DNA from: Candidatus Schekmanbacteria bacterium
Lineage (GTDB): Bacteria; CSSED10-310; JACPHN01
Assembly: GCA_016188575.1 (NCBI GenBank)
Contig: JACPHN010000105.1
Location: forward strand, 1-20,912
DNA: 20,912 nt
Direction: 5' to 3'
Shown piece by piece: positions 168 through 20,912 of this stretch (positions within the stretch are counted from its first letter, which is position 1; every line of letters begins with the position of its first letter). The notes under the pieces are model-generated. The model was not told the origin of the DNA. It saw nothing but the letters and a program-made list of their open reading frames with translations, and made no database searches. The translations under genes were made by a program, and so were the position numbers.

Positions 168-446
168 CTACGAAGTGCCCGAGGCGCGCGACCTGGTCCT
201 TGAGGAGACCCCAGGTGACTTCCAAGGCGACTTCCGGCGAGGTTGACTTGCTCGCGGGCGACGGCGGGCCGGCGGCAGCAACGGCGCCGCGTCCGGCCCG
301 GCGAAAACCGACAACGCTTCGGTCACGTCGTGCGGGTGCACGACCCAGCCCGGGGCGCTAGCCGCCAGCCGCTCGCACAGCGTCTCGGGCTCGCGGATGT
401 TGCCCGGCTACGGGCGGTTCGCCAGCGCAGCCAGGGCCTCATCCAT
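168..446 (-). pseudogene. Degraded coding remnant, unidentified
   Basis: From an ATG at 444-446 the minus strand reads MDEALAALANRP, meets a TAG at 408-410, and continues in the same frame with a protein-like stretch that includes the segment APGWVVHPHDVTEAL and runs to a stop at 168-170. A second frame over about 103-230 also reads protein-like (WGLLKDQVARLGHFV), which would fit a frameshift. The codon choice is GC-rich like real genes here. I do not recognise the family. The internal stop and possible frame change are why I call it a pseudogene rather than a gene. Confidence 0.3.
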
Positions 447-493
447 TCGTCAGCCGGTCCGAAACCCCGCCCTTCAGGACGGAATGTGCGCGG

Positions 494-532
494 AACCGAG
501 CGCAGCGAGGTCCAGGGCGGCGCCCGCCGCCG
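494..532 (+). repeat. 39-bp dispersed repeat, copy 1
   Basis: This segment matches 20330-20368 in inverted orientation at 38 of 39 positions, with the first 33 bases identical. It begins AACCGAGCGCAGCGAGG. Here it lies just before the DUF4007 remnant. The other copy lies inside the HNH domain of the IscB gene at the far end of the window. Immediately upstream, at 464-483, is a short imperfect hairpin (CCGCCC-TTCA-GGACGG). Confidence 0.85.
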
Positions 533-540
533 CTGGCCCG

Positions 541-1620: not shown

Positions 1621-1800
1621 AGAGTTTTCCATTGCCGCGGGCAAAGCCGTCGACCTGTGGCTCCACGACATCGGCAGTGGCCTCAACTACACACGCCAGA
1701 GCTTCGGCGAGCTCCTGAGAATGGTGGAACGGAACGAAGTCGCCGAAATCCTCACCGCCCACAAGGATCGCCTGGTACGGTTCGGTTTCGAACGGAAACC
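1606..1800 (+). pseudogene. IS607-type serine recombinase (TnpA) fragment
   Basis: The plus-strand frame carries DIGSGLNYTRQSFGELL, then MVERNEVAEILTAHKDRLVRFGFE, which is the characteristic middle of IS607-family serine recombinases (IGSGLN...RDRLxRFGFE). These enzymes move IS607 elements and carry the catalytic serine near the N-terminus in a YARVSS-like segment. That segment, the N-terminal helix-turn-helix and the C-terminal part are all absent here; only about 65 residues of a roughly 200-residue protein remain. The frame upstream reads non-homologous sequence and downstream stops at 1823-1825. The adjacent TnpB fragment supports the assignment, because IS607 elements encode both proteins. 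Confidence 0.75.
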
Positions 1801-1899
1801 GAGAAGCGCTACGCCTGTTGGATGATCATGAATCCTCACCGGATCGCGGCGCTGGTCGCGGGCCAGGCTCCTATTCCCGATCATTTCGCTGTTTCCCGC

Positions 1900-2215
1900 A
1901 GCGAAAAGCGGCGAGTCAGGAACTACCTTCGGCGGGTGATCCGGCGCCAGCGAGGCCGGGCGCCCCGAGTCGGCAGGGCCCGCTCCTTCACGACCGAAGC
2001 TCAGTGCCTCTCGGCAGCGGATGCGCGCCGAGATCGAGCGTCGCATCGATGAAGCGACGAACCAGGTGCTTGCCGTGCGCACGCCCTCGGTGCTCGTGAC
2101 GGAACGCCTCGATATTCGCGGCAAGGCGAAGTCCAGGCGTCTGTCGCGGATCGTGTCCACGTGGGCGAGGAAGTATCTCAAGGATCGAGTCGAGCTCAAG
2201 GCGTCGGCGAGAGTC
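1900..2215 (+). pseudogene. TnpB (IS607/IS605-type RuvC nuclease) fragments
   Basis: TnpB is the RNA-guided nuclease carried by IS605 and IS607 elements and the relative of Cas12. The clearest part is at about 2021-2215: RIDEATNQVLAV, then LVTERLDIRGKAKSRRLSRI and VSTWARKYLKDRVELKASA, which matches the RuvC region (VxExLxxxGKxKSRxLSRxVxxWxR). An earlier part in another frame, RRQRGRAPRVGRARSFTTEAQ at about 1945-2005, resembles the upstream part of the same family, which would imply a frameshift or deletion near 2000-2020. The sequence stops matching exactly where a 61-bp palindrome starts at 2216, so the zinc finger and final RuvC motif are lost. Confidence 0.65.
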
Positions 2216-2276
2216 GTAACTGTTCACCCCCTCCCCCCGCTTGCGGGGGGGACAGAGGAGGGAGGTGAACAGTTAC
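2216..2276. repeat. 61-bp palindromic element
   Basis: GTAACTGTTCACC (2216-2228) pairs perfectly with GGTGAACAGTTAC (2264-2276). Inside it CCCCCCGC (2233-2240) pairs with GCGGGGGG (2243-2250) around TT. The two stems are separated by an asymmetric purine-rich bulge on the right side. It abuts the broken end of the TnpB fragment. Its inner part (CACCTCCC...GGGAGGGGG when read on the minus strand) resembles the hairpin inside the acylase gene at 8931-8972. It behaves like a REP-like or MITE-like element, not a typical terminator. Confidence 0.75.
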
Positions 2277-18566: not shown

Positions 18567-19649
18567 CTATCCCGAGCGCTGCGTCGCGGATGCGAACATC
18601 AGAAACTCAGCGACGTTTTCGAGGGTGACGATCCCGACGAGCCGGCCCTCGTACACTACCGGCATCGACCGGCAATCGATTTCTTGCAGGCGCGCATAGG
18701 CCTGCTCCACCATCTCCGTTGCCTGCACCACCTGCACGTTCGGGTTCATTGCCGAGCGCACCGGCAGGTCCGTGCCGAACTGCGCAAGCGCGCGCAACAG
18801 GCCCTGCCGTGTGAGCATCCCGAGAACCTTGCCGCCCTCGACGACCGGAAAATCGTGCTGAAAGCCCGCGAGAACGTGGCGGATGGCATCGGCAAGCGAT
18901 TCTGCTGGCGCCAACGCGCAAAATTCGGTGATCATCACGCGCGCGACACGCACTCCCGCGAGGGAGCTCGTGATGCGCACGGCGCGGGCCTCTCCGGCAG
19001 CTCCCAGCCACACGAAGAGCGCGATGAGGACGAGAAAGGGATTTACTAGCGCCCCGACCAGGCCGATCAGCACCGCAAAAACCTGGCCGACCGCGGCGGC
19101 GATTTCCGTCGCGCGCACGCGATCCGTGCCCATCGACAGCAGCGCGCGCAACACCCGCCCCCCATCCATCGGGAACGCCGGGATGAGGTTGAAGGCCGCG
19201 AGCACGACGTTGACCCAGAACAGTTTCGCCAGGAAGTTTCCGCCGGCCGTCGCCGCGTCGCTGATGGACGACATCTGTGCCAGCGGCACGGTGACGACGA
19301 TGAGCAGGACGGCCAGGGCGACGTTGACGGCTGGACCAGCGAGGGCGATGAGCAGCTCGTGGCGCGGCTCCTCCGGTAGCTTCTCCAGCCGCGCCAGACC
19401 GCCGATCGGCAGCAGCGTGATGTCCTTGGTGCGCACCCCGAAGCGCCGCGCCATCAGCGCATGGCCAAGCTCGTGGAGCACGACGATAGCGAACACGAGA
19501 ACCACAAACGCCATGTCTCCAACGATCTCGGGGAGCGCGGCGCCGGCTCGGGCATGCGATAGCGCAATCCACGCGAGCAGGATCGCGAAGGTGCCGTGAA
19601 CGTAGATGTCGATCCCGGCGACGCTGCCGATCTTCCATGACCACTTCAT
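18567..19649 (-). CDS. Site-2-type M50 zinc metalloprotease with two CBS domains
   Basis: Such intramembrane proteases cut membrane-bound substrates such as anti-sigma factors. The 360-residue product starts MKWSWKIGSVAGIDIYVHGT, usual for the SpoIVFB-like branch. It has several transmembrane helices and the zinc motif His59-Glu60-x-x-His63 (HELGHALMARRFGV), and the second zinc ligand region NLIPAFPMDGGRVLRALLS with Asp162. The last 130 residues form a CBS pair (ITEFCALAPAESLADAI; QVVQATEMVEQAYARLQEIDCRSMPVV) that may sense adenine nucleotides. The ATG at 19647-19649 overlaps the IscB stop as ATGA, with GGAGAT just upstream inside IscB, so its translation may be coupled to IscB. Confidence 0.93.
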   Translation of the reverse strand: MKWSWKIGSVAGIDIYVHGTFAILLAWIALSHARAGAALPEIVGDMAFVVLVFAIVVLHELGHALMARRFGVRTKDITLLPIGGLARLEKLPEEPRHELLIALAGPAVNVALAVLLIVVTVPLAQMSSISDAATAGGNFLAKLFWVNVVLAAFNLIPAFPMDGGRVLRALLSMGTDRVRATEIAAAVGQVFAVLIGLVGALVNPFLVLIALFVWLGAAGEARAVRITSSLAGVRVARVMITEFCALAPAESLADAIRHVLAGFQHDFPVVEGGKVLGMLTRQGLLRALAQFGTDLPVRSAMNPNVQVVQATEMVEQAYARLQEIDCRSMPVVYEGRLVGIVTLENVAEFLMFASATQRSG

Positions 19650-20912
19650 GCGATCTCCGGCGCGGAAACCACCGGGTTCAGCCGGTGGAGGAAGCGCCTC
19701 TTTCTCTGGCTGTAGGTGTAGCCATCCGCTCGCTGGAGCAGACGACAGTGTTTGTGCGAAATTCCTTGAATCGTACCCGCGTCTGTCTGGACGTTGAAGC
19801 TACCCGAGGCCCTTTCGGCGACGCGCCCTACGTACTTACCGGCTTGCTTGCCTCGTGGCACCATCGCACGAACCAACTCGCCGGTTGCAAAACCGTGGAC
19901 GCGCTTTTGCCGCATGAGATAGCCGCGCGGGAAGCCGAACTTGTCGACACGTGTTCGTTGGTAACTGCGGCGGCCACCGGCCTCGATGGCAAGCATGGGT
20001 TTTTGCCAGCCTGCCACGCGTTCGACCACCCCTACGCAGGCGGCATCGAGGGCATGCGTCTTCGGAATGCTGAACCGCGAGCGATTCCACTTGGTTCGAC
20101 CGCCGCTACTGACCTCGAGGTCCAGACCCGTGTTTTCGAGCGCTTGCCAGAGGACTCGGCGCGTGACATTGACCGCAGCCACGGCAGCCAGCGGTGCCTT
20201 GGCGTTCGCCAGAACATGCGCGAGTCGCTTGCTGTCGCGCCCAACAAACTCCCGTACCTCCCGACTGCCCTTGCGCTCGTTGCATGAGCGGCAGGCGAGT
20301 GTGAGGTTCGGGAACCCTCCCATCGCCTTCGGCGACGGGCGCCGCCCTGGACCTCGCTGCGCTCGGTTGCTCGTCCGATCGCTGCCGCCGCGCGCCTTTG
20401 GCACGATGTGCTCGATTTGCAGCGGCACGTTCTCGGCGTCGCAACAAGCACACCGCCGGCCCCACTTCTCCAGCAGGTACTCGCGAAGCTCGTAGCCAGC
20501 GAGCTCGCCCTGCTGGTACCCGATACCAGAGATCTCGGGGTTCTGCATCGCCTGGGTATCGAACCGCACGGTCTCGACGGACACGGCGCCGATCGGGCAG
20601 AGTTTTCGATAGCGGCCAACCCAGGCGAGCACGTTGTCGAGCCGGCAGCGAAGACTGGGCGGCAACCATCCCTCGCGCCGTCGTCGGTTGTCCAACCGTG
20701 GCGCTCGATAGCGCAAGTTGACGATCGCCGGCGCCGCCGATAGTTGCTCCGCTGCTCGATGTGCTTGCGCACGGTCTCGCCCCGGTCCTCGATTTCGGCC
20801 AAATGCAGAACATGTTGCACCGAACCATCCTCGCGGACGATCGCGACACCAGTCGTCCTGGCCCCCGGATCTAGCTTCAGGCGCAGCGGTGCGACCACGC
20901 TGTCCTCGAGGA
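19646..20912 (-). CDS. iscB: IscB-type RNA-guided nuclease, frameshifted and 5' partial
   Basis: IscB proteins are IS200/IS605-associated, omega-RNA-guided nucleases and the ancestors of Cas9. Visible from the right edge are RuvC-I with LKLDPGARTTGVAIV (Asp at 20869-20871) and the Arg-rich bridge (QRSNYRRRRR). A frame change near 20721-20728, equal to one lost base, follows. The second frame (19646-20716) continues with YRAPRLDNRRR and EGWLPPSL, RuvC-II SVETVRFD (Glu at 20573-20575), an HNH domain with CACC, IEHIVPKARGG (His at 20408-20410) and LACRSCNERKG, RuvC-III KTHALDAACVG, and the C-terminal target-interacting region. Twenty extra residues split the HNH between SN and LTLAC. The PLMP domain, start codon and omega-RNA, which lies upstream in this family, are beyond the window. 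The frameshift is either inactivating or a sequencing error. Confidence 0.9.
   Translation of the reverse strand, partial: PRGQRGRTAAPEARSGGQDDWCRDRPRGWFGATCSAFGRNRGPGRDRAQAHRAAEQLSAAPAIVNLRYRAPRLDNRRRREGWLPPSLRCRLDNVLAWVGRYRKLCPIGAVSVETVRFDTQAMQNPEISGIGYQQGELAGYELREYLLEKWGRRCACCDAENVPLQIEHIVPKARGGSDRTSNRAQRGPGRRPSPKAMGGFPNLTLACRSCNERKGSREVREFVGRDSKRLAHVLANAKAPLAAVAAVNVTRRVLWQALENTGLDLEVSSGGRTKWNRSRFSIPKTHALDAACVGVVERVAGWQKPMLAIEAGGRRSYQRTRVDKFGFPRGYLMRQKRVHGFATGELVRAMVPRGKQAGKYVGRVAERASGSFNVQTDAGTIQGISHKHCRLLQRADGYTYSQRKRRFLHRLNPVVSAPEIA
20306..20368 (-). repeat. 60-nt insertion in the IscB HNH domain carrying the 39-bp repeat (copy 2)
   Basis: Read on the minus strand, IscB has SN, then 20 extra residues (RAQRGPGRRPSPKAMGGFPN), then LTLACRSCN, where family members run SNLTLAC directly. 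The inserted 60 bases are flanked by AACC on both sides (20365-20368 and 20305-20308) and keep the frame. The first 39 bases (20330-20368) match 494-532 in inverted orientation with one mismatch. It behaves like a protein-invading repeat. Confidence 0.75.

What the first reader, a model, noticed from the sequence alone, without database searches (positions are those of the whole stretch)
20306..20368. A dispersed repeat has inserted in frame into the HNH nuclease domain of an IscB
Directly visible: 60 nt, a multiple of three, separates the conserved SN and LTLACxxCN parts of the HNH finger. The segment begins with a 39-bp repeat found again at 494-532 and is bounded by AACC on both sides. From family knowledge, IscB HNH domains have no such loop. 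I infer a protein-invading repeat comparable in behaviour to Rickettsia palindromic elements, here splitting the domain of a Cas9 ancestor between its two CxxC pairs.
Basis: partly seen in the sequence, partly recalled or inferred. Interest (0 to 1): 0.75.

Follow-up and report, generated by a model that had tools for sequence, protein, structure and literature searches.

The report
Tiny mobile repeat inside IscB nuclease
A 60-letter mobile repeat, present in about 36 places in this bacterial genome and in no other genome searched, has jumped in frame into the HNH nuclease domain of an IscB (a relative of Cas9's ancestor), just as sister copies have jumped into other IscB, TnpB and IS66 transposon genes; the kind of event is known, the victims are unusual.

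Summary
The window IscB carries exactly 60 extra nucleotides (20309-20368, minus strand; 20 residues) between its two HNH CxxC pairs. Three paralogues in the same genome have the empty site, and 62 of 64 homologues have the shorter spacing (15 residues against 35 here), so this is a derived insertion, not an ancestral loop. The insert is a dispersed repeat: 36 matches in the 9.2-Mb genome, none convincing in 59 other genomes, 84,980 species genomes or IMG/VR. Empty sites show one rule: 60 nt inserted immediately 5' of AA, consensus GG|AAC(C). 'AACC on both sides' is therefore not a 4-bp duplication; at most AA is duplicated. Copies outside one carrier repeat lie mostly in mobile-element genes: two IscB, at least five TnpB-derived sequences, one IS66-type ORF. 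Best reading: a non-autonomous, hairpin-bearing miniature element moved in trans by an unidentified enzyme and multiplied by hitch-hiking, tolerated because it is 60 nt with open frames and adds a disordered loop. It works like Rickettsia palindromic elements but lacks their size and inverted repeats, and lacks REP tags. The window IscB also has a 1-nt frameshift upstream, so it may already be dead. New member of a known kind.

The parts
20309..20368 (-). 60-nt mobile repeat (AACCGAGCGCAGCGAGGTCCAGGGCGGCGCCCGTCGCCGAAGGCGATGGGAGGGTTCCCG), in frame, encoding NRAQRGPGRRPSPKAMGGFP
   Evidence: Absent from three in-genome IscB paralogues and 64 homologues; 36 genomic matches
20305..20308 (-). Host AACC at the 3' edge of the insert; AAC encodes the conserved HNH Asn (N137 of the ORF)
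   Evidence: Present in the empty paralogues; N137 invariant in the homologue alignment
19646..20716 (-). IscB, downstream frame (RuvC parts, HNH with insert, C-terminus)
   Evidence: NF040563 guided_IscB 268 bits, PF14239, PF14279, PF01844
20719..20912 (-). IscB N-terminal part in another frame, cut by the contig end
   Evidence: RRXRR/IscB N-terminal match; 1-nt deletion at 20722/20723 against the C162 paralogue
439..493 (+). Left arm of carrier repeat 'repeat-1' (TCATCCATTCGTCAGCC...), about 40 copies in the genome, many without the 60-nt insert
494..537 (+). 3'-truncated copy of the 60-nt element (model positions 1-44) inside repeat-1

Best explanation
The insert is a non-autonomous miniature mobile element, 60 bp long and without coding capacity of its own, that forms one conserved hairpin plus a small 5' hairpin and inserts immediately 5' of AA in GG|AAC(C)-like sites. 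It jumped into the HNH part of an IscB gene in frame. Because it is 60 nt and open in all six frames (the C variant) or four of six (the T variant), the insertion adds 20 residues as a disordered loop between the HNH CxxC pairs and keeps the conserved HNH residues. Copies persist mainly in multicopy, dispensable mobile-element genes (IscB, TnpB, an IS66-type ORF) and in one abundant carrier repeat, and some were multiplied by hitch-hiking when the carrier was copied. Shown: insertion, exact length, dispersal, target preference, in-frame fusions, carrier duplication. Inferred: movement by an enzyme acting in trans (single-strand Y1-type or a 2-bp-duplicating recombinase), tolerance rather than benefit, reduced or neutral effect on IscB activity.
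For: Exact 60-nt empty/filled pairs: IscB HNH against C90, C5, C162; IscB C-terminus C136 against the window and C162; TnpB RuvC-I C13 against C161 and C37; repeat-1; C106 and C161 empties for the C235/C147 and C130 copies. 36 matches in the genome and none convincing in 59 other genomes, 84,980 species genomes or IMG/VR. In-frame fusions in TnpB and an IS66-type ORF. Shared-site duplicates C13/C158, C33/C83, C147/C235, C130/C115. Hairpin kept in 97.6% of cells with one compensating pair. Insert predicted disordered, flanking HNH strands and helix as in an insert-free homologue.
Against: No enzyme could be tied to it: resident Y1 elements have different ends. Most copies sit in one carrier repeat and may derive from a single insertion, so the number of independent jumps is about nine, not 36. 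Covariation rests on one column pair and three sequences, two of them near-identical sisters. No protein or activity data.
Confidence: 0.85

Rival explanations
1. Mechanism variant A: a single-stranded hairpin element (REP/PATE-like) mobilised in trans by a Y1/HUH transposase. Read on the other strand it sits 3' of a (G)(G)TT tetranucleotide, ends itself in GGTT and carries a complementary AACC just 5' of its hairpin, as IS200/IS605 guide logic would ask; no target duplication is then needed.
For: Fixed flank on one side, no duplication needed beyond AA; 8 Y1 transposase matches in the genome; hosts are largely IS200/IS605-type genes; hairpin constraint. The guide logic is from general knowledge of IS200/IS605 elements.
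Against: The ends of the five related Y1 elements (ACACCAAAGTC...) do not resemble the element; targets CGTT, AATT and GATT fit a GGTT guide imperfectly.
Confidence: 0.35
2. Mechanism variant B: a double-stranded recombinase or transposase that makes a 2-bp duplication (AA), such as an IS607-like serine recombinase, moves the element.
For: The C130 copy has AG on both sides where its relatives have AA, as a true 2-bp duplication would give.
Against: A single degenerate copy, and the C115 copy at what looks like the same site reads AA; IS607-type recombinases were not searched for.
Confidence: 0.2
3. The insert is a selected, functional loop or switch that modulates the nuclease, with the repeat specialised to RNA-guided nuclease genes.
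For: Two IscB and several TnpB insertions, mostly in frame; HNH residues preserved.
Against: Insert sites, orientation and reading frame differ between hosts, so unrelated peptides are made; the loop is predicted disordered; the window IscB is frameshifted; the C136 and C83 hosts are degraded.
Confidence: 0.05
4. Ancestral or family-specific HNH loop that merely resembles the repeat.
For: None found.
Against: Empty in three paralogues and in all 64 homologues measured.
Confidence: 0.01

Closest known systems
Rickettsia palindromic elements (RPE)
   Same: Small dispersed repeat inserted in frame into protein genes and tolerated by the host protein (PMC2229807, PMC10969869)
   Different: 60 bp against about 105-150 bp; no terminal inverted repeat of about 12 bp; hosts here are mobile-element nuclease genes, not conserved cellular genes; no sequence relation tested
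GTAG/CGTC REP elements and REPINs (RAYT-associated)
   Same: Small hairpin repeats, some inside genes encoding 20-30 residues (PMC3733652)
   Different: No GTAG or CGTC tag at an end, longer unit, resident Y1 element ends do not match
RUP (pneumococcus) and Correia/NEMIS (Neisseria) MITEs
   Same: Non-autonomous miniature elements found in transposase genes; 107-bp NEMIS fused in frame (PMC2229807)
   Different: Those have terminal inverted repeats, TA ends and clear target duplications; this one does not
Small dispersed repeats (SDR) of cyanobacteria
   Same: Very small mobile repeats that nest in other repeats (from my own knowledge; only citations found)
   Different: Paper not available to compare; sequence and size class not tested

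Membership tests
Rickettsia palindromic elements | In-frame insertion into protein-coding genes | tested here: met
   IscB, TnpB and IS66-type ORF fusions
Rickettsia palindromic elements | About 105-150 bp palindrome with terminal inverted repeats | tested here: not met
   60 nt; ends AACCGAGCGC and GGGTTCCCG share only a 4-6 base inverted match
Rickettsia palindromic elements | Hosts are conserved cellular genes | tested here: not met
   Identified hosts are mobile-element genes; the one other gene is stopped by a TAG
GTAG/CGTC REP elements | GTAG or CGTC tetranucleotide at one end of the hairpin repeat | tested here: not met
   Ends are AACC and CCCG
GTAG/CGTC REP elements | Association with a RAYT-type Y1 transposase | tested here: inconclusive
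   8 Y1 matches in the genome, none flanked by the element or with similar ends; RAYT subtype not assigned
Classical MITE | Terminal inverted repeats | tested here: not met
   Only a 4-6 base inverted match at the ends
Classical MITE | Target-site duplication | tested here: inconclusive
   At most AA; AG/AG in one copy
Miniature non-autonomous mobile element (general) | Dispersed copies with precise empty sites and no coding gene | tested here: met
HEARO / IscB omega RNA | Covariance-model match to RF02033 | tested here: not met
   15 HEARO matches in the genome, none at element copies
IscB (host protein) | RRXRR/RuvC plus HNH and NF040563 match | tested here: met

The most novel reading that the evidence does not exclude
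A miniature element that has specialised as a hyperparasite of RNA-guided transposon nucleases (IscB and TnpB): it enters their genes in frame, rides on their transposition and tunes or disarms the nuclease without breaking the reading frame.
Probability: 0.1. Interest if true: 0.75.

Novelty: new member of a known kind. Interest (0 to 1): 0.42.

Why it matters
It is a clean case, documented by empty sites, of a tiny mobile repeat entering the catalytic domains of Cas9- and Cas12-ancestor nucleases. It gives natural insertion points (HNH between the CxxC pairs, just after TnpB RuvC-I, before the TnpB zinc finger) whose tolerance can be tested directly, and a precise target rule (60 nt, 5' of AA) from which the missing mobilising enzyme can be sought.

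Tried and rejected
omega RNA origin: no HEARO match at any copy and no Rfam hit in the window. 4-bp AACC target duplication: excluded by the AATT and AACG empty sites. Resident Y1 elements as parents: their ends differ. Selection for open frames in the element: six open frames are expected in 21-60% of shuffled or Markov sequences of that composition, so openness is not evidence. Horizontal source: a core pattern is absent from 84,980 species genomes and IMG/VR; hits in G010, G044 and G058 are partial and near the noise level. Pfam naming of the C129 host gene and the C122 ORF failed; the IS66 assignment of C122 rests on the neighbouring ORF as read by eye. RNA and DNA folding z-scores were unremarkable. 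The C33 TnpB site against C190 aligns only roughly, so it was not used as an exact empty site.

Full report
What is there. The window is contig C218 of a 9.2-Mb, 275-contig genome. At its right end, on the minus strand, lies an IscB gene: NF040563 guided_IscB 268 bits, PF14239, HNH_5 and HNH. Between the two CxxC pairs of the HNH domain sit 60 nt, 20309-20368, encoding NRAQRGPGRRPSPKAMGGFP; the conserved Asn-Leu (N137-L138) follows intact.

It is an insertion. Three IscB paralogues in the same genome (C90, C5, C162) have AACCTCAC at this point with no extra sequence. Among 64 homologues from named genomes and IMG/VR in which the HNH motif could be measured, 62 have 15 residues between [ED]H[IVL]xP and CxxCN, two have 19, and the window has 35, that is 15 plus 20.

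It is a dispersed repeat. The 39-bp pattern has 26 genomic copies at up to three mismatches and none for the reversed control. A sequence model of the whole unit gives 36 matches with E at or below 2e-4. Fifty-nine other genomes, none from the same family, have only weak partial matches, and a core pattern is absent from the 84,980-species collection and from IMG/VR.

Where the copies are. By my reading of the flanks, 23 of the 36 lie at one fixed site in a carrier repeat (repeat-1, TCATCCATTCGTCAGCC...), including the truncated copy at window 494-537. Many repeat-1 copies lack the element, with the exact empty site GCGG|AACCCCGG. The other 13 include two IscB genes (the window; the C-terminus of a degraded IscB on C136). 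They include TnpB sequences: C13 just after the RuvC-I GFDWGIE motif, C33 and degraded C83 before the zinc finger, C130 and C115 and probably C37:31462 near the 3' end. They also include an ORF on C122 followed by an IS66 Orf2-like ORF (the IS66 naming is by eye), a pair of duplicated flanks on C147 and C235, a diverged relative on C34, and a gene of unknown family on C129, where the inserted copy carries an in-frame TAG.

Rule of insertion. Filled and empty sites differ by exactly 60 nt wherever they align cleanly. The left junction is followed by the element's CCGAG, and the right junction begins AA but continues CC, CG, TT or TC. Empties of the odd types are C106 (AACG) and C161 (AATT). At most AA is duplicated in general. 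One copy (C130) has AG on both sides, which would fit a 2-bp duplication, but that copy is degenerate. The roughly nine independent targets give the consensus GG|AAC(C).

Structure of the element. A nine-pair hairpin in the middle and a small 5' hairpin are kept in 97.6% of cells; one pair changes on both sides (CG, UA, GC) and neighbouring pairs change by wobble. The support is modest. Folding energies are not unusual for the composition.

Effect on IscB. AlphaFold2 puts pLDDT below 50 on residues 117-133, inside the insert, while the HNH strands and helix either side match those of an insert-free homologue (E99-103, E138-142, H143-149 against E216-220, E235-239, H240-246). The model as a whole is of middling confidence (mean pLDDT 69.8), and its best PDB matches are IscB structures. 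The HNH positions that are invariant among homologues are kept. The gene nevertheless has a 1-nt deletion upstream relative to C162 and is cut by the contig end, so whether it makes a protein is unknown; a sequencing error cannot be excluded.

How it most likely works. Shown: discrete insertion, fixed length, dispersal, target preference, in-frame fusion, and copying of carriers after insertion (C13/C158, C33/C83, C147/C235). Inferred: an enzyme in trans moves it, and copies survive mostly in dispensable multicopy genes because insertions elsewhere are removed. The enzyme is not identified. Eight Y1 transposase matches exist, but the five related elements have other ends. In-frame openness needs no selection: sequences of this composition are open in all six frames 21-60% of the time.

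What is known. In-frame protein-invading repeats are established: RPEs in Rickettsia, GTAG/CGTC REPs encoding 20-30 residues inside genes, and 107-bp NEMIS fused to transposase genes (PMC2229807, PMC10969869, PMC3733652). This element works like them but is not a member of any: it fails RPE size and inverted repeats, REP tags, and MITE inverted repeats. What is new is the sequence family and the victims, HNH and RuvC domains of RNA-guided transposon nucleases. A text search for such insertions in IscB or TnpB found none, which is a limited test.

Noticed in passing
L044 (C162:118248-119306), IscB RuvC-I region: Another IscB paralogue carries a different in-frame insert of about 35 residues (GRSAEFRVLSTEKGQGQEEDPRLSSSSLSTRDSALSTC) before VLHLAEIE.
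   Followed up: no
repeat-1 copies, e.g. L067, L078, L086: Repeat-1 has a second nested insert (GGTTTCAGCGGTGGTTTGGGCGGGGTCCAAACCCCGCCC...GCCGGCCT) at its 3' hairpin, flanked by repeats of CCGGCCTGAAGGCCGG.
   Followed up: no
window 1792-2251 (+): Degraded TnpB remnant close to the truncated repeat copy at 439-537.
   Followed up: partly
ends of contigs such as C161, C69, C170, C214, C117, C201: Several contigs end inside IscB or next to its HEARO omega RNA, so IscB copy number is probably under-counted by the assembly; 15 HEARO matches against 4 full IscB genes.
   Followed up: partly
L054 (C5:79952-80230): An IscB with a large internal deletion (residues about 88-362 missing) downstream of a HEARO RNA.
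   Followed up: no
C158:9732-10700 (L136, L240, L241): A TnpB remnant with the 60-nt element at the same site as C13 and a repeat-1 copy inserted about 12 nt away, a nested insertion.
   Followed up: partly
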